This document shows, piece by piece, positions 3,454-44,385 of a stretch of 46,875 nt of DNA. Position 1 is the stretch's first letter; the number at the start of each line of letters is the position of its first letter. The position numbers and the translations under genes were made by a program. A model generated the notes under the pieces. That model saw only the letters and a list, made by a program, of their open reading frames with translations. It ran no database searches and was not told where the DNA came from. Origin of the DNA: Vulcanimicrobiota bacterium (GTDB lineage Bacteria > Vulcanimicrobiota > JAJTBE01); NCBI GenBank assembly GCA_021107945.1, contig JAIORV010000120.1, positions 1 through 46,875 on the forward strand, read 5' to 3'.

Positions 3454-3667
3454 ATCTGTAGGAGGGACGTCCCCGTCCCGATAAAAGGATAATGGAAAAA
3501 GGATAATGGAAAAAGGATAATGGAAAAAGGATAATGGAAAATGGATAACGGATAATGGATCTCGTTTCCCACATCCCCTTTCCCTAGAGGACACAGAGAT
3601 ATAAATATTTTGTAACCATTCAGACCTCCCACTGCAGGAGAGGTTTCCAGCCTCGATTTTCACGGAT
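3454..3667. repeat. Cluster of three dispersed repeat families
   Basis: Positions 3456-3489 are a 'gggacgtccccgtcccgata' palindrome copy. Positions 3487-3560 are tandem units of ggataatggaaaaa (period 14). Positions 3618-3660 (cagacctcccactgcaggag then aggtttccagcctcgatttt) are the reverse complement of 38086-38128. The cluster lies between two converging genes; no gene is visible. Confidence 0.8.
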
Positions 3668-16715: not shown

Positions 16716-17320
16716 ACAACCCGGACCTGTTTTTTTACCACGAAGCCACGGAGGGCACGGAGAAAAGAATCGATAACGGAAAATGGATGATGGATGATGG
16801 ATAATGGAAGATGGAAGATGGATAATGGATAATGGATCTCGTTTCCCCTTTCCCTTACAGGAAGGACATTCCCGTCCCGATAAAGGGATAATAGAAGCCA
16901 AATTCCATTCCGACTACTGGCTTCCATCGAGGTAGCGGAGGTTTTTAAACCTCCCATGAGATTAACCCCCGGATTTATCCGGGGGAATAAGGGAATACAC
17001 CAACCCCTACTGCCTTAGCCGCTTCAGCGGCTTCCCGATAAGGGTGTAATGATAGCAATGGTATAGGATTTTTATAAGAATTAAGGAATTATACCGCTGA
17101 GAAAATCAGAAAAACGGATGACGGATGTATTATTTCGCCAAAAAGACCAAGAGGGGCGAACTGAGAACGGCGAACGTATGTGCAGGTGTGACTCCACAAC
17201 TCCAACAATACGGCGAACGGCGAGCGAAGGAAGGGCGAACGGACCCGCAATTATAACTCGGTGCTCTCCATACTCCTCGTGCCTTCGTGGTTAATAGAAC
17301 TAACTTAAAAGGAAATTGAA
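16716..17320. repeat. 605-bp gap packed with dispersed repeats
   Basis: In order: accacgaagccacggagggc (16737-16766); period-8 ggatgatg/ggataatg tracts (16782-16836); gggacattcccgtcccgata type (16857-16888); the palindrome tagcggaggtttttaaacct (16932-16955), a compensated variant of the 'gcgggtttttaaacccgc' family; the composite cassette (16954-17042) with CCCCCGGATTTATCCGGGGG (16966-16985) and AGCCGCTTCAGCGGCT (17017-17032); gcgaacg units (17155-17245); and ctcgtgccttcgtggttaat (17275-17298). No gene is visible. Confidence 0.85.
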
Positions 17321-36998: not shown

Positions 36999-37147
36999 CT
37001 GACGGGAAAAGGGAAAGGGGAAAGGGGAAACGGGAAATAGAAAGGGGAAGGGGGAAATAGGAATAAGGATAATGGATCCATTTTCCAATTTCTTTTTTCT
37101 TTTATTCCTTTGTGGTCTTTGCGGTGAAAAAACAAATCTGCCATCCG
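36999..37147. repeat. Purine-rich 'gggaaagggg' tract and degenerate repeat
   Basis: Positions 37002-37055 are gggaaaagggaaaggggaaa-type tandem units. Positions 37104-37127 are cctttgtggtctttgcggtg. Positions 37143-37168 are gttatccgttatccgttatc units (period 8) that run into the 3' end of the DtxR-type gene. Confidence 0.7.
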
Positions 37148-37900
37148 TTATCCGTTATCCGTTATCCTCTTCACATATATCTCGGAAACCAGGGCATGAT
37201 CCATTGCTATCTCGGTTTCGTCCACATGAATCACGACTGTGGGCAGTTTCTGATTTACCGTGACAATTCCCTCCGGGTTAATTCCCAGGGATGAGAGTCT
37301 TCTAAGGCGTCTTCTGTCCTTTGTGGCAATGAATACAATTCTTCCCTTTTCCCCCGGCATAAGATCCACCAGGGGAATTACAAGAGGCGTTATTGTTTTT
37401 GTCAGTTTTTTACAGCATTCCCCCGGCGGTATGGGCCTTCCGTGGGGGCATGTGGATGGATGCCCCAGGAATGAGCATATAGAATCCGTGACCTCCTCGC
37501 TCAGGATATGCTCAAACTGACATGACGGTGCCTCGATTCTCCCCCGGGGAATATCAAAGAGATCCGTCAACATTCTTTCAGTGAGGCGATGTCTTCTTAT
37601 CAGGTCGCGAGCGTGTTTCTCCCCGCCATCCGTGAAAGTGACATGACCTTCCTTTAAATATATCAGATTCATTTTTTTCAGCCTGTCGAGATTATCAAGA
37701 ATTACATTCCCCGCTCCGGATTCTCTGTAATGATTTTCCGTAACCTTACCCTTTTCCCTGAGTACCCATATTGTTTCCAGAAGCTCATCAATCTCGGTGT
37801 CTATTTCAACAGCATGGTGCTTGCATATATCACAAAGTGGGCTTTCCAGGCTTTGATCCCGCTCGTCTTTGTCGATCATTCCTTCACCGTTTCCTTTCAT
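37148..37900 (-). CDS. DtxR-family metal-dependent repressor with FeoA-like domain
   Basis: A 250-residue iron/manganese-dependent regulator. A short N-terminal CDICKHH segment (residues 23-29) is followed by a winged helix (about 34-95), then the metal-binding dimerisation domain. There CQFEH (C127, E130, H131) matches DtxR's primary site, and H104/E108 in RHRLTERM match the ancillary site; the DtxR His98 equivalent is Glu here. The family motif CPHGRPIP follows at 151-158. Residues 172-246 form a FeoA/SH3-like domain (VDLMPGEKGRIVFIATK, LSSLGINPEG). The neighbouring FeoB lacks a separate FeoA gene. A second ATG at 37879 is a possible start. It probably represses the ferrous-iron locus when Fe2+ is plentiful. 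Confidence 0.9.
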   Translation of the reverse strand: MKGNGEGMIDKDERDQSLESPLCDICKHHAVEIDTEIDELLETIWVLREKGKVTENHYRESGAGNVILDNLDRLKKMNLIYLKEGHVTFTDGGEKHARDLIRRHRLTERMLTDLFDIPRGRIEAPSCQFEHILSEEVTDSICSFLGHPSTCPHGRPIPPGECCKKLTKTITPLVIPLVDLMPGEKGRIVFIATKDRRRLRRLSSLGINPEGIVTVNQKLPTVVIHVDETEIAMDHALVSEIYVKRITDNG

Positions 37901-37914
37901 TGTAAAGAGTGTTG

Positions 37915-37929
37915 ATAATCGTTATTATA
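37915..37929 (-). promoter_or_regulatory. Putative -10 box overlapped by an inverted repeat upstream of the DtxR gene
   Basis: ATAAT and ATTAT (37915-37928) form an inverted repeat with a four-base centre. On the minus strand a TATAAT (37929-37924) overlaps it, placing transcription start near 37917. An AT-rich inverted repeat over the -10 fits autoregulation by a metal-dependent repressor. No convincing -35 is seen. Confidence 0.4.
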
Positions 37930-38069
37930 ATGAAAATTTCCAGATATGTATGTGATTGTCCTTTAAGGGTATCCTCCTGTTTGTCGTTTGATAGTACACC
38001 TCTTGATTTGGGTGGAAGCCGGTCTCCCGACCAGTCTGGAAATGGTATGAAATCGAACTGTTTGTAGGG

Positions 38070-38128
38070 GTGGCATCTTGCCACGAAAATCGAGGCTGGA
38101 AGCCTCTCCTACAGTGGGAGGTCTGAAT
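38070..38128. repeat. Two hairpin repeats, one shared with 3618-3660
   Basis: GTGGCATCTTGCCAC (38070-38084) is a short hairpin. Positions 38086-38128 (aaaatcgaggctggaagcct then ctcctacagtgggaggtctg) are an inverted near-identical copy of 3618-3660. The sequence ends just before the stop of the zinc-ribbon gene. Confidence 0.75.
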
Positions 38129-38130
38129 AT

Positions 38131-38331
38131 TTACGAATCGGAATTACTTTTCCCGGAAAAAACATCTTTAAACCACTTGATTATTTTCGACTCTCCCGTG
38201 ATTTTATAACCACAATTCGGGCAGCAAAACTTTGAGCATCCACTACATAGCTTTGTGTCACTGCAGTAGCACGTGGCATCTTCCATGTTGAATTTGTACC
38301 CGCACAGGGGGCATTTCATTTCATCTGTCAT
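38131..38331 (-). CDS. Small cysteine-rich zinc-ribbon protein
   Basis: A 66-residue protein with nine cysteines. CPLCGYKF (C7, C10) and CPNCGYKI (C37, C40) look like the two knuckles of one or two zinc ribbons; between them CYCSDTKLCSGCSKFC adds five more cysteines (21, 23, 29, 32, 36). The C-terminal 20 residues are basic and amphipathic (IIKWFKDVF). It lies on the same strand between feoB and the DtxR-type regulator. The density of metal-type ligands suggests Fe or Zn binding, perhaps a role in Feo function like FeoC, but it is not a recognised FeoC. No clear ribosome site precedes the ATG. Confidence 0.7.
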   Translation of the reverse strand: MTDEMKCPLCGYKFNMEDATCYCSDTKLCSGCSKFCCPNCGYKITGESKIIKWFKDVFSGKSNSDS

Positions 38332-38570
38332 AACTGTTCAATCCCATTGTTTTTTATTGCAAAAGCCTGCCCTGAATTCATTTCAGGGAATCTTTTCAGG
38401 GTACGCTGAGATCACTGAAACAAATTCAGTGCGGCGCAGAGGATTAGAAGCATTGTCTGCCATTCATTAAATTCTGAATGCCAATTTTCAAGTATGAAAA
38501 CTAAATTATCTCAAAGATCTACTCTTTTCCTTCCTCTGCGATCTCTGCGGTGAATAGTAACCTTCCGACA
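38332..38570. repeat. Hairpin and degenerate repeat between feoB and the zinc-ribbon gene
   Basis: CCCTGAATTCATTTCAGGG (38370-38388) is a perfect 7-bp stem. A related inexact pair, actgaaacaaattcagt (38414-38430), follows. Positions 38529-38557 read cctctgcgatctctgcggtg, the degenerate repeat. No gene is visible. Confidence 0.65.
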
Positions 38571-40562
38571 TTATAAAACCACTCCCAGGGCATTTAATGC
38601 AAAGTTAAGGAGTCCGCCCACAATAAACGCGAAAGTGAAGACAAAGGCCGCCACAGCTACGGCGGTCTTCAGTCCTTTCTCCTTGATAATAACAAACATC
38701 TGAGCGACACAGGGGAGGAAAAGAGTAATTGTTACCATGCTGACAAGAATCTGGTTGTTGCTCAACATTCCTTTCCTTGCCATTTCCAGCAATCCCGCCG
38801 CTCCGTAATCTCTTCGAAGAAATCCCATCATGAACGAATCTGTGACTTCCGGGGGAAGTGAGAGGATTTTCGCCATAACGGGAGCCGCCATATCGCGGAT
38901 AATCTGGAGAATACCCACTTTATCAATAAAAAACAGGAATAACGTCGCCAGGAGGAAAATGGGGACAGCTTCCCTGAGATACCATTCAATCCGGGCAAGT
39001 GTCTTGACGGCGATATTCTTCAAGCTTGGAAACCTCAGAGGCGGAATTTCGAGGATAAAATCGGATGTCTCCCCGGGAATCAGCTTGTTGGCGATAAATC
39101 CCACCAGTATCATCGATCCCAGGACAATAAAGAGCCATATGAAAAAGGCGTATGATTTCAACCCTGCAAGCATCCCCATTATTAAGCCCAGTTGAGCGGA
39201 GCATGGCACCCCCAGGGCAAGCAGAAGAATCACGAGCATTCTCTCTTTTGGCGAATCAAGTATCCTTGCGGATATTGTAGCCATAGCTCCGCATCCCAGT
39301 CCCAGTATCAGGGGAAGCACCGCTTTGCCGTTCAACCCCGCCCATTTGCATACGCGGTTTGCTATTATTGCAAGACGGGGAAGGTAGCCCGAGTCCTCGA
39401 GGATTCCAAAGAAAAAGAAAAAGGCGGCCACAATGGGCAGGACAATTGCGATGGCATAAGTTATCCCCACGGATATGAGTCCATATTCGCCCACAAGTAA
39501 ATCCTGAACAAATTTTATCGGTATTATTGATTCCAGTACCCTTGCTATGAAAGGATTGATTATTCCGGTACCCTCGACAGCGTTCCCGAATACCGTTCCC
39601 ATAAAGAAATCGACAACTGTGCCGGCCGCAAATTTTCCTACGAAAAAGTACATTAAAGTAAGCACTGCGATCAAGATAGGCACTCCCCATACAGGATGCA
39701 TACATATCCTGCCCGCATTGTACATGAATCCCTTTCGGGGAGCTTTCTCAATAACTGCAACTTCTTTTATTAACCGGTCGGTATTTTGAAGTCTTTCCTT
39801 GTTAATAACAATTTCCAGGGGATCCGGGTATCTTTTTCTTGTATCTCTTATTATCCCCTGTATCTCTTCCCTGCCTTGCGGCGTTAACTTTTCATCAAGC
39901 CATTTGTTTAACGACATATCCTCGGACAGGAGCATGATCGCAACCGAGCGTTTCGAAATGGGAAAATCGGGAAGGTAGCCCTCGATTTTTTTTACCGCGT
40001 CTTCGATGAAGGGATCATATTTGAATTCATAAGTCGAGACATCAGCTTTTTCAATAGCGGGAAGGATTTTGTCGGTTCCTGTTCTTGATATTGCCACGGT
40101 CGGAAAAACCTGTGTCCCGAGCATTTTCGACAGCTTCTTGAAATCAATATTTATTCGCCTTTCCCGGGCCTCGTCCATCATATTCATCACGAGGATAAAA
40201 GGGATCTTCATCTCTGCAAGTTGAAGCGTGATAAGGAGAGTTCGGGCAAGGTTCTTTGAATCCGCTACCTGAATAATGACACTGTCCTTCTCCTCGAAGA
40301 GAATATCACGGGTTACAACCTCGTCCGTTGACATGGGCAGGAGGTTGGCAATACCCGGCGTGTCAATCACTTGGTATTTATTGCCGTGGAATCCGGCGTT
40401 TCCTCTTGATATCTCCACCGTTGTCCCGGGGTAGTTTGAAACCACAACATATTGTCCCGTGAGAATTCCAAAAATGACGCTTTTTCCCACGTTCGGATTG
40501 CCGATTAATATAATATTTTTGATTTGCTCTTCACTTTTCTTTTTTTGTTTAATGAATGACAT
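38571..40562 (-). CDS. feoB: Ferrous iron transporter FeoB
   Basis: A 663-residue inner-membrane Fe2+ transporter. The N-terminal G domain shows G1 GNPNVGKS (21-28), G2 region VVVSNYPGTTVEISRG, G3 DTPG, and G4 NMMDEA. A helical spacer (about 165-270) follows. The membrane part has the duplicated Gate motifs FFFGILEDSGYLPRLA, then LILGLGCGAMATISAR with the conserved GCG cysteine, LGVPCSAQLGLIMG, and later LFLPCVAQMFVI. AAGG lies about eight bases before the ATG. There is no separate feoA, but the downstream regulator carries a FeoA-like domain. This is the main ferrous-iron uptake system in the window and fits an anoxic or reduced habitat. Confidence 0.95.
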   Translation of the reverse strand: MSFIKQKKKSEEQIKNIILIGNPNVGKSVIFGILTGQYVVVSNYPGTTVEISRGNAGFHGNKYQVIDTPGIANLLPMSTDEVVTRDILFEEKDSVIIQVADSKNLARTLLITLQLAEMKIPFILVMNMMDEARERRINIDFKKLSKMLGTQVFPTVAISRTGTDKILPAIEKADVSTYEFKYDPFIEDAVKKIEGYLPDFPISKRSVAIMLLSEDMSLNKWLDEKLTPQGREEIQGIIRDTRKRYPDPLEIVINKERLQNTDRLIKEVAVIEKAPRKGFMYNAGRICMHPVWGVPILIAVLTLMYFFVGKFAAGTVVDFFMGTVFGNAVEGTGIINPFIARVLESIIPIKFVQDLLVGEYGLISVGITYAIAIVLPIVAAFFFFFGILEDSGYLPRLAIIANRVCKWAGLNGKAVLPLILGLGCGAMATISARILDSPKERMLVILLLALGVPCSAQLGLIMGMLAGLKSYAFFIWLFIVLGSMILVGFIANKLIPGETSDFILEIPPLRFPSLKNIAVKTLARIEWYLREAVPIFLLATLFLFFIDKVGILQIIRDMAAPVMAKILSLPPEVTDSFMMGFLRRDYGAAGLLEMARKGMLSNNQILVSMVTITLFLPCVAQMFVIIKEKGLKTAVAVAAFVFTFAFIVGGLLNFALNALGVVL

Positions 40563-41271: not shown

Positions 41272-44082
41272 TTATATTGATATATCCGATGACATGTCCA
41301 TATTGTCCATATTATCTGCCATCATGTTGTCACCAACGCCGCCGAATTCCACATCTCCGACTCCGCCACCGGTATCGTCGCCGGCATCGCCGGCATCCAT
41401 GTTGGTATCAATTCCAAACGACTGGGCTTCTTTTTGTTCCTGAGCGGAAAGCTGCCCTTCTTTGCTCATGCCTTTTTGCATTTTGTTATCACGGCCAAGC
41501 TGGTTGAAACTGTTCTGGTCAAACTTGCCTCCATCGACAGATCCAGCCTCGCTGTCATTGCTCGCAATCTTTGCCCTGACAGAGGGTTTGTTGGGGGAAT
41601 CTTCAAGCGCCCTGTGAACATTCTGATCCACATTCGCGCCTATTTGAACTTTCTCCTGCACCGCCTGCTGGTAGAGAACGGACAACGATCTCTGATCCGC
41701 CCGGTACCTGTTTGCCAATGATTCGTTATCCTGACCTGGTTTCACATTTCCTGTTTTTGGCATTGCGTTACCGGCCTTTGGCATTGCGTTACCGACTTTT
41801 GGTATTGCATTACCGACTTTTGGCATTGCGTTTGCCATCCCCGGTACCGCGTTTGCTCTTCCGGGAACCGCGTTGGCGGTTCGGGGTCTTGTGTTACCCT
41901 TGTTGGTGAGTTTCTCTCCCGTCGCCGCTTTTTTGACCGCGTCGTCTCCGCCGACTTCCCGGATTTTCTGCTTGTCGCCAAGAATGGACTGTGACAGTCT
42001 TTCCAATTCCTGCTCATAATATTTCTGCTTATTGGAACCCTGTCCTTGCTCTGTGCCCTTGCCTTCTCCAGCCTTTCCGTCGGACGCTTTCTTTGACTGA
42101 CGACGCTTTTGTAATTCCTTCTTCTTGTCGTTCTTCTTTTTTTCCTTAGCTTCTTCTTTCTTCTTGGCCTCTTCCTTCTTCTTAGCCTCTTCCTTCTTTT
42201 TGGCCTCTTCCTTCTTCTTAGCTTCTTCCTTCTTATTGGCCTCTTCCTTCTTCTTGGCCTCATCCTTTTTCTTTGCTTCTTCCTTCTTCCTGGCATCCTG
42301 TTGTTTCTTTGCATCCTGCCCTTTTTTGGGATCGGTTACTTTCCTCTTATCATCCTTCTTGTCTTCCCGTCCTGCTTTTTCCGAAGGCTGATTCGCTTTG
42401 CCGGGTATTGCATTCGCTTTTCCCGGGTGCGCGCTTCCCTTTCCCCGATGTGCGTTCGCATTGCCGTGTACTGCATTTATCCTTCTCGGATGTGCGTTTC
42501 CAAGACCCGGCAGTGCGTTGTCCTGTGCCGGCGCGGCATTTGCTTCTACCGGCGGTGGGGGTGCATTGGGTGTGGGCATTGCAGGCATCGCGGGCATCAC
42601 AGGCATCGCAGGCATAACGGGCGCGGCGGACATTGTAGGTGCGGCGGACATTACAGGAGCAGATCCAATTCCTCCTCCGCCGCCTCCTGCGGACATTGAC
42701 ATACCGCCACCGCCTCCCGCGGACATTCCACCACCGAAGCCGCCTCCTGTTGACATGCCTCCACCAAAGCCTCCGCCCATGGACATTCCACCACCCATTG
42801 TCGGCATCACCATCGGCATTGAAGCTCCCATTGAGGGCATAGGCATTGCCTGTGGCATCGCCGAGGACTGTGTTGCGGCCATTCCGGCTCCAAGTATTCC
42901 CGCTCCCAGTATTCCCGCAGTCATGGCTTTTTGCTGTTGGGATGCTTGCCCTTGTTGTTGCCCCGCACGCGTCTTGGCAAACGGGTCGGACATTCTCTGA
43001 AGCGGATTTTTGCCCAAATTAACTTTCTTGCCAAGTTCTGAAAGTCTTCCCCGAATTGCTGATTGGTGCTCGTAATTTTTTCCGAGACCTTCCATGAGTT
43101 TGGAACGCTCCCTCTGGATTCTCTCCATGGTGCGCATGCCTTTCTGGAGTTTCTGTTTACTGGCCAATTTCTGTGCTTTTGCTCTTGTTTTCTTATTCTT
43201 ATTGAGCTTCTGCTGTTGCCCCATTTGTTTTGACTTCATATCCATCTGCTTTGACTTATTCTGGAGCATCTTGCCCATATTCTTGAGCATTTTGGCTATC
43301 ATTCTCAGCACCTTGGCAACCGCTCTCAAAGCCGCCGCAATTGCAGGACCCACAAACGGTATTCCCTGCACTGCGTTTGCCGCCGCCTCAATTGCCTTTG
43401 CCGCCATATTGAGTGCTTTCGCCGCAAGGTTGAGTGCCTTCGCCGCAACTTTCAATGCTTTCGAAATACCCTTGAACATCACCTTTTTAACCCCAGAGAG
43501 CTTCTCCTTGATACCAAAAGCTTTTTCCATTTTACCAAACTTCGTCATTCCAAGTTGGTTCATCTTATTCATTTTCATCTGTTGCATGCCCTGACGGTTT
43601 GTCTGACCGAGAGCCTGGGCGATCTTCCCTTGTTGAGAACGCTGTGAACCCATCATATCCATCAATTGGCTAACATCATTAACGCCTTGATAATTGGGTG
43701 AGCCTCCGAGGAGAGTGGCTCCCATTCCTCCTTTGCCCATCATGCCGGACATGGCCATCATATTGCCGGACATGGACATCTGGTTCATGAGCTTTGCGCC
43801 GTCCGTACCTGTCTGATTCTGAAGATTCCCGCCAAGAGCCTGTTTGGCATGGGGAGAGCCTTTGATAACGTTTCGTCCACCTCTGTTTGCCCCTACAGCT
43901 TTTGTCATGCCTTCAACTGATTTTTTACGACCACTTTTCAGGCTTTTATAATGGTGGGATTTTACCTTCTTCCTTTGCTCCTTGCCAAGTCCCTTGAGCT
44001 TGGACCTGGCCATTGCAAACCTGTTATCAATACCTTTTATCATGTCCTGTTTAAGTTCTGGAACCTCACCAATTCCATCCAT
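41272..44082 (-). CDS. Large low-complexity protein built of tandem repeats
   Basis: A 936-residue protein of unknown function. I start at the ATG at 44082, which has GAGGTG six bases upstream; a GTG nine bases earlier lies in that site. In order: a basic Met/Gly/Gln-rich region; a helical alanine array of seven-residue units (AAKALNLAAKALNMAAKAIE) ending in IPFVGPAIAAALRAVAKVLR; a Lys/Gln-rich coil; a Gly/Met-rich stretch (GGGMSMGGGFGGGMS); a first heptad array of NAxPGxx units; a KKEEAK array; a second NAxPGxx array (NAVPGRANAVPGMANAMPK); and an acidic Asp/Met C-terminus. There is no signal peptide. The IPFVGP segment with its alanine helices recalls tape-measure or translocator-type proteins, but that is only a resemblance. 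Confidence 0.8.
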   Translation of the reverse strand: MDGIGEVPELKQDMIKGIDNRFAMARSKLKGLGKEQRKKVKSHHYKSLKSGRKKSVEGMTKAVGANRGGRNVIKGSPHAKQALGGNLQNQTGTDGAKLMNQMSMSGNMMAMSGMMGKGGMGATLLGGSPNYQGVNDVSQLMDMMGSQRSQQGKIAQALGQTNRQGMQQMKMNKMNQLGMTKFGKMEKAFGIKEKLSGVKKVMFKGISKALKVAAKALNLAAKALNMAAKAIEAAANAVQGIPFVGPAIAAALRAVAKVLRMIAKMLKNMGKMLQNKSKQMDMKSKQMGQQQKLNKNKKTRAKAQKLASKQKLQKGMRTMERIQRERSKLMEGLGKNYEHQSAIRGRLSELGKKVNLGKNPLQRMSDPFAKTRAGQQQGQASQQQKAMTAGILGAGILGAGMAATQSSAMPQAMPMPSMGASMPMVMPTMGGGMSMGGGFGGGMSTGGGFGGGMSAGGGGGMSMSAGGGGGGIGSAPVMSAAPTMSAAPVMPAMPVMPAMPAMPTPNAPPPPVEANAAPAQDNALPGLGNAHPRRINAVHGNANAHRGKGSAHPGKANAIPGKANQPSEKAGREDKKDDKRKVTDPKKGQDAKKQQDARKKEEAKKKDEAKKKEEANKKEEAKKKEEAKKKEEAKKKEEAKKKEEAKEKKKNDKKKELQKRRQSKKASDGKAGEGKGTEQGQGSNKQKYYEQELERLSQSILGDKQKIREVGGDDAVKKAATGEKLTNKGNTRPRTANAVPGRANAVPGMANAMPKVGNAIPKVGNAMPKAGNAMPKTGNVKPGQDNESLANRYRADQRSLSVLYQQAVQEKVQIGANVDQNVHRALEDSPNKPSVRAKIASNDSEAGSVDGGKFDQNSFNQLGRDNKMQKGMSKEGQLSAQEQKEAQSFGIDTNMDAGDAGDDTGGGVGDVEFGGVGDNMMADNMDNMDMSSDISI
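41735..41895 (-). repeat. Coding array of 21-bp NAxPxxx units (second array)
   Basis: Seven consecutive heptads: NAVPGRA, NAVPGMA, NAMPKVG, NAIPKVG, NAMPKAG, NAMPKTG, NVKPGQD. The DNA period is 21 bases (for example ggcattgcgttaccgacttt), with near-identical middle units that suggest recent duplication. Confidence 0.85.
42145..42300 (-). repeat. Coding array of 18-bp KKEEAK units
   Basis: About eight 18-base units (ttcttcttggcctcttcc on the plus strand) encode alternating KKEEAK / KKDEAK, a charged, probably single-alpha-helix segment between the two NAxP arrays. Confidence 0.85.
42390..42545 (-). repeat. Coding array of 21-bp NAxPGxx units (first array)
   Basis: Heptads NAAPAQD, NALPGLG, NAHPRRI, NAVHGNA, NAHRGKG, SAHPGKA, NAIPGKA. 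They share the Asn-Ala-x-Pro core with the second array but are more diverged. Confidence 0.8.
43368..43466 (-). repeat. Coding array of alanine-rich helical heptads
   Basis: Consecutive seven-residue units SKALKVA, AKALNLA, AKALNMA, AKAIEAA and ANAVQGI form an amphipathic or hydrophobic helix leading into the IPFVGP turn. Confidence 0.75.
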
Positions 44083-44385
44083 GTTAAACACCTCACAAAT
44101 AGTTATGACTTCTTACTATTACTATCACGCATGATTTATAAAAGTATAGGGTTGTCAAAGAAAAAAATATTTTTTGAAAAGTATGTAATATATTTCACAA
44201 TATGTGAATTTTAATGATGTTGTTTTTGGCTATGTCGTGTTTTTAAAGTCATTACTGTTCAGCCCTCTGTTTTTTCACCACAGAGAACTCTGCGGTGAAT
44301 AGCCGGATTTACAATAATAACAACATAATCCTCCGGCAATCAAGGGCAGGATAAAACTGTCTGCTTCATAAAATATAAAACCGAC
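44083..44385. repeat. Divergent intergenic region with a palindromic degenerate repeat
   Basis: TTCACCACAGAGAACTCTGC then GGTGAA (44274-44299) is a 12-bp stem with one mismatch made from two facing halves of the degenerate repeat. The rest is AT-rich. The minus-strand text upstream of 44082 contains TTGACA (plus-strand tgtcaa at 44153-44158) but no well-spaced -10. Confidence 0.7.

What the first reader, a model, noticed from the sequence alone, without database searches (positions are those of the whole stretch)
41272..44082. 936-residue protein made of several repeat arrays, including a NAxPGxx heptad
Two arrays of seven-residue Asn-Ala-x-Pro units flank a charged KKEEAK helix. A glycine/methionine-rich stretch and an alanine heptad helix ending in IPFVGP lie on the N-terminal side. 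I know no family with this combination. The second NAxP array is nearly identical at DNA level, so it is probably still expanding. It could be a structural, scaffold or phase-separating protein.
Basis: partly seen in the sequence, partly recalled or inferred. Interest (0 to 1): 0.65.

Follow-up and report, generated by a model that had tools for sequence, protein, structure and literature searches.

The report
Repeat-rich coiled-coil hairpin protein
This gene of an uncultured bacterium encodes a protein of a previously unnamed family, built from a long helical hairpin plus fast-changing repeats and always found with an acidic partner protein; it is probably a secreted or scaffold-like structural protein tied to a flagellum-like export machine, though that link is inferred from genomes only.

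Summary
In detail: window 41272-44082 (minus) is one intact 936-residue ORF with two NAxP heptad arrays, a KKEEAK stretch, Gly/Met-rich segments and an Ala-heptad helix around IPFVGP. It belongs to an unnamed family confined to 15 of 149 genomes of its phylum (Eremiobacterota by record titles). The conserved part is not the NAxP arrays, which no relative has. It is an N-terminal ~350-residue domain, modelled as two ~100-residue helices folded back at IPFVGP, plus two short C-terminal helices. The family is very basic (pI 9.7-10.5) and almost free of Cys and Trp. Every genome with it also has a small acidic helical protein (often with a zinc ribbon), commonly encoded directly downstream. All 15 genomes have a second flagellar-type export system, eight lack a detectable flagellin, and DUF1521 proteins (a type III-secreted domain elsewhere) occur only in these genomes. 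I favour a non-Sec exported coiled-coil structural or translocon-like protein with an acidic chaperone (0.4) over a cytoplasmic scaffold (0.33). Neither is shown. No library names the family; it fails or leaves open the defining tests for T3SS translocators and phage tape measures.

The parts
41272..44082 (-). whole gene, 936 aa, ATG start
   Evidence: homologues
44131..44158 (-). promoter-like TTGACA-16-AATCAT upstream
   Evidence: consensus match only
44089..44094 (-). ribosome-binding-site-like GAGGTG
   Evidence: read directly
43858..44046 (-). conserved basic helical segment, residues 13-75 (KARKxRKAxKKIKxxH in the family)
   Evidence: alignments A1/A3; model
43675..43857 (-). poorly conserved Gly/Met/Asn-rich linker, residues 76-136
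   Evidence: pLDDT below 50 for most of 89-127
43369..43674 (-). first long helix, residues 137-238, ending in Ala heptads
   Evidence: AlphaFold2 model, pLDDT about 74-86
43345..43368 (-). conserved turn QGIPFVGP, residues 239-246, at the most hydrophobic part of the protein
   Evidence: invariant P242, V244, G245; hydropathy; model
43027..43344 (-). second long helix, to residue 352
   Evidence: model
42565..42987 (-). Gln/Ala then Gly/Met/Pro-rich low-complexity stretch, residues 366-506
42373..42540 (-). NAxP array 1, 8 degenerate heptads, residues 515-570
42115..42294 (-). KKEEAK repeat array
41953..42033 (-). conserved short helix C1 (KQKYYEQELERLSQSILGDK)
   Evidence: alignment
41728..41874 (-). 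NAxP array 2, 7 heptads, residues 737-785
41545..41718 (-). conserved C-terminal helix-2 module (SLSVLYQQAVQEKVQIGANVDQNVHRAL)
   Evidence: profiles A4/A6, E 1.5e-23 and 6e-19; these profiles include this sequence
41275..41535 (-). acidic, Met/Asp/Gly-rich tail, pI 4.1

Best explanation
The protein is a structural substrate of a non-Sec export system, most likely the second, flagellar-type type III system of this lineage. It would be made in the cytoplasm, kept soluble by an acidic helical partner, exported, and then work outside through its long coiled-coil hairpin. The hydrophobic IPFVGP tip would contact or enter a membrane or pack against other copies, while the fast-changing low-complexity repeats act as a spacer. 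Shown here: the family, its anatomy, the hairpin (as a model), the charge complementarity with the partner, the operon arrangement in relatives, and co-occurrence with the export system and with DUF1521 proteins. Inferred: the physical complex, the export, and the role of the hairpin tip.
For: Partner found in all 15 genomes with the family and, as a strong match, in no other of 148 searched; gaps of 2-60 bases between the two genes in several relatives. Protein pI 9.7-10.5 and partner pI 4.1-4.9 in every case. Cys 0.06% and Trp 0.08% against 0.92% and 0.96% in neighbouring ORFs, a trait of many flagellar/type III exported axial proteins (own knowledge). The most hydrophobic 19-mer lies at the turn in all 11 members (Kyte-Doolittle 1.47-1.96). 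All 15 genomes lie among the 27 with an FlhA at least 56% identical to the second-system FlhA. That system has its own FliE, FlgC, FliF to FliR and FlhB. No flagellin was found in 8 of the 15, so it exists without flagella. DUF1521, type III-secreted in Bradyrhizobium (PMC6506597), occurs in 10 of 149 genomes, all among the 15 (within the 27, p = 0.0004). The C-terminal helix module also sits on the N-terminal side of peptidase-like proteins without evident Sec signals.
Against: The gene is in no case next to export-system genes. The co-occurrences follow clades; at family level the link to the second FlhA is not significant (p = 0.09), and 12 genomes have that system without this protein. DUF1521 genomes are also the larger genomes. 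The partner shows no TPR and has a zinc ribbon in many members, unlike known type III chaperones. The first 25 residues are not enriched in Ser/Thr/Asn in this member (2nd percentile). Fold searches gave nothing below E 0.001.
Confidence: 0.4

Rival explanations
1. Cytoplasmic scaffold: the coiled-coil hairpin oligomerises, the basic N-terminal segment and Lys-rich stretches bind nucleic acid or acidic partners, and the repeats form a flexible or phase-separating matrix; the acidic zinc-ribbon protein is a permanent subunit or regulator.
For: No signal peptide seen by eye; strongly basic; low complexity; zinc-ribbon partner and a GNAT-type gene follow in several operons; in one relative it follows hrcA-groEL-dnaK-dnaJ-prmA. 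Usually one copy per genome.
Against: Near absence of Cys and Trp, a conserved hydrophobic tip, and restriction to genomes with the second export system and DUF1521 proteins are not predicted by it.
Confidence: 0.33
2. A membrane-acting alpha-pore-forming or translocator-like protein that inserts the hairpin tip into a target cell.
For: Hydrophobic hairpin tip; Foldseek top hits include ClyA and AhlB/SmhB pores, but none below E 0.001.
Against: Only one moderately hydrophobic segment (1.62 in this member); no sequence match; TM-scores to these pores about 0.2-0.4.
Confidence: 0.12
3. A domesticated phage tape-measure protein.
For: Weak PHROG tape-measure matches in two relatives (E about 1e-4); a phage tape measure shares the AGIPFVGPAL turn.
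Against: No phage genes recognised beside the copies examined; no tblastn match in 50,697 phage records; the window protein itself has no PHROG match. The shared turn is short and fits convergence.
Confidence: 0.05
4. A selfish or decaying repeat-rich ORF with no conserved function.
For: Repeat arrays differ wholly between relatives.
Against: N-domain and C-terminal helices are conserved across at least six families with an intact frame.
Confidence: 0.03

Closest known systems
Type III secretion translocators SctE/SctB with class II chaperones
   Same: Coiled coils, disordered regions, a hydrophobic segment, and a small chaperone-like gene close by (features as reviewed in PMC10333785)
   Different: Not in a secretion gene cluster; partner is not TPR but zinc ribbon plus helical bundle; no sequence match; the export system here is of flagellar type
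Phage tail tape-measure proteins
   Same: Long Ala-rich helices and an IPFVGPAL turn
   Different: No phage context and no family-level match for this protein
Designed antiparallel coiled coils (sc-apCC series)
   Same: Best PDB profile matches, through Ala/Leu/Ile heptads
   Different: Compositional resemblance to synthetic proteins, not ancestry
SMC/MukB coiled-coil arms and chemoreceptor cytoplasmic hairpins
   Same: Long antiparallel hairpin of two helices (Foldseek hits, E above 0.02)
   Different: No ATPase or signalling domain; similarity not significant

Membership tests
T3SS translocator (SctE/SctB) | Sequence match to a translocator family | tested here: not met
   No Pfam or NCBIfam match
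T3SS translocator (SctE/SctB) | Gene within a type III secretion cluster | tested here: not met
   Neighbours are Feo genes, a methyltransferase and a polysaccharide pyruvyl transferase; relatives likewise not in such clusters
T3SS translocator (SctE/SctB) | Dedicated TPR (class II) chaperone | tested here: not met
   Partner shows zinc-ribbon-like matches only, no TPR
T3SS translocator (SctE/SctB) | Transmembrane helix or hairpin | tested here: inconclusive
   Hydropathy maximum 1.62 at the turn, 1.47-1.96 in the family
T3SS translocator (SctE/SctB) | Secretion through the type III machine | not testable with these tools
   Needs an experiment
Phage tape-measure protein | Match to tape-measure profiles | tested here: not met
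   None for this protein; E about 1e-4 in two relatives
Phage tape-measure protein | Located among phage tail genes | tested here: not met
Alpha-pore-forming toxin (ClyA/AhlB type) | Significant fold similarity | tested here: not met
   Best E 0.046 to such a pore, TM about 0.2-0.4
Phase-separating scaffold | Condensate formation | not testable with these tools
   Only composition is suggestive
New family described here | N-domain profile A1 with IPFVGP hairpin, acidic partner in the genome, C-terminal helix-2 module | tested here: met

The most novel reading that the evidence does not exclude
A lineage of uncultured bacteria has turned a flagellum-type export apparatus without flagellin into a dedicated secretion system. 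This protein would be its main coiled-coil extracellular or translocon component, exported with a new type of zinc-ribbon acidic chaperone, alongside a set of low-complexity, DUF1521 and peptidase-like substrates, some of which share a small helical module with it.
Probability: 0.2. Interest if true: 0.8.

Novelty: new variant of a known kind. Interest (0 to 1): 0.5.

Why it matters
It replaces a puzzling orphan with a defined family: a conserved helical hairpin, an apparently obligate acidic partner and rapidly changing repeats. If the export link is right, it opens a testable route into an undescribed, flagellin-independent use of a flagellar-type export system in a poorly cultured phylum. 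It also shows that the eye-catching NAxP repeats are the disposable part.

Tried and rejected
Profile searches in Pfam, NCBIfam and PHROGs and PDB sequence searches gave no family. Phage origin was tested by viral-contig scan and phage tblastn and rejected. A multi-effector secretion signal in the C-terminal helix was first rejected with profile A4 (one copy per genome), then partly revived with a wider profile A6, mainly in one genus; the only second candidate in the own genome is weak (E 0.016). FHIPEP presence alone proved uninformative because 138 of 149 genomes have it. N-terminal export-signal composition gave a mixed result. Comparing array length between strains was impossible: the genome is the only one held of its class. 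Literature searches found nothing on the family.

Full report
Observation. The ORF is real and intact: 936 residues, window 41272-44082, minus strand. The arrays are as described, with two corrections. Only the inner four units of NAxP array 2 are close at DNA level (0.81-0.90 between neighbours; array mean 0.59), and array 1 is degenerate (mean 0.53). The IPFVGP motif is a turn inside a hairpin, not the end of the helical region.

Family. Searching 38 genomes of the phylum found homologues at 29-37% identity over roughly the first 350-530 residues in nine other genomes. An N-domain profile found matches in 15 of 149 genomes of the phylum. One of those (G001, E 5e-5, coiled coil only, in a protein with a lytic transglycosylase domain) I discount. 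I add G028, where a contig holds the C-terminal half with the conserved helix module directly before the partner. The working set is therefore 15 genomes. Record titles name Eremiobacterota for several; a scan of 84,980 species genomes found only 11 loci, all consistent with this set.

Anatomy. Members share a basic N-terminal segment, a variable linker, the Ala-heptad hairpin with invariant P, V and G in the turn, a Gly/Met-rich stretch, variable repeats, and two short C-terminal helices. The repeats differ in each: NAxP here, LTSIGQLGGANS in rumen relatives, MPSMPS or KPAPKAES elsewhere. AlphaFold2 with 11 sequences gave two helices, 137-238 and 245-352 (mean pLDDT 74.6, pTM 0.48); the helices are credible, their packing is not established. 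The hydropathy maximum lies at the turn in all 11 members. Foldseek found no significant match.

Partner. In relatives the next gene downstream often encodes a 190-340 residue acidic helical protein, commonly with a CPxC...CPxC zinc ribbon. Its profile finds strong matches in the same 15 genomes and nowhere else in the phylum, including the own genome at G000 C82:22980-23678, unlinked and 182 bases from a contig end. An AlphaFold2 model of a relative's partner shows an N-terminal ribbon, a helical bundle and a disordered acidic tail; no significant fold match. A GNAT-like gene follows in several. Family pI is 9.7-10.5, partner pI 4.1-4.9. I infer a complex; it is not shown.

Export context. 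The own genome has a true flagellum (FlhA, FlhB, FliR, FliD and flagellin; contig C107) and a second flagellar-type system (contig C83: FliE, FlgC, FliF to FliR, FlhB, FlhA and a FlgG-like protein). Both FlhA pass the FlhA cut-off and not the SctV one. FlhA-2 orthologues (56% or more identity, against 53% or less for the rest) occur in 27 genomes, including all 15 with the family. The association is large in raw counts (15 of 27 against 0 of 122) but follows clades, and at family level it is not significant. Flagellin was not found in G003, G007, G010, G014, G016, G017, G028 or G146, although they have FlhA-2. DUF1521, an autocleaving domain of type III-secreted proteins (PMC6506597), was found in 10 genomes, all within the 15. 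Several members keep the GDPH motif and have Gly/Met-rich low-complexity stretches. The two matches in the own genome are slightly below the Pfam cut-off.

Shared module. A profile of the C-terminal helix also finds small Lys/Glu- and Gly-rich proteins and peptidase-like proteins in one genus and, more weakly, elsewhere. This module may be an export, chaperone-binding or assembly element; the data do not choose.

Judgement. Lack of Cys and Trp, the hydrophobic hairpin tip, the acidic partner and the genome-level links favour export (0.4). A cytoplasmic scaffold remains close behind (0.33), because there is no physical linkage to export genes and the partner has a zinc ribbon. The protein does not qualify as a T3SS translocator or a tape measure on the features tested. 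It is best described as a new lineage-restricted family of a known general kind: a coiled-coil hairpin structural protein with a dedicated partner.

Noticed in passing
L146 9862-11337 (-), L147 501-1970 (+), L148 17833-19611 (+), L149 8945-11179 (+), all own genome: Four proteins carry only the C-terminal cytoplasmic part of FlhA/SctV (FHIPEP), one fused to a FliG-N-like domain and one with a weak HEAT-like match. Large-genome relatives also have many FHIPEP matches.
   Followed up: partly
L145 (G000 contig C83), L150, L151, L152: A second flagellar-type export system; in several relatives no flagellin was found, suggesting a non-motility role.
   Followed up: partly
L208, L199, L201-L204: DUF1521 proteins with a GDPH autocleavage motif and Gly/Met- or His-Gly-Pro-rich low-complexity stretches, only in genomes holding this family.
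   Followed up: partly
L148 14643-17531 (+), L149 3422-4978 (-): Beta-propeller-like proteins with similar N-termini (MKIxP...) and C-termini (IGGVKLxI), encoded near FHIPEP-only proteins; possible non-Sec exported set.
   Followed up: no
L191 6197-7144 (-), L185, L186, L190, L192, L193, L195: Small Lys/Glu-rich proteins, several with a GGCCG motif, Gly/Met repeats and a C-terminal helix like that of this family.
   Followed up: partly
window 3483-3560, 16772-16837, 37004-37060: Short tandem arrays of 7-base units (GGATAAT, ATGGATG, GGGAAAG types) outside the larger ORFs.
   Followed up: no
window 37148-40562: A DtxR-type repressor with FeoA domain and FeoB lie beside the gene; relatives do not share this neighbourhood.
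   Followed up: partly
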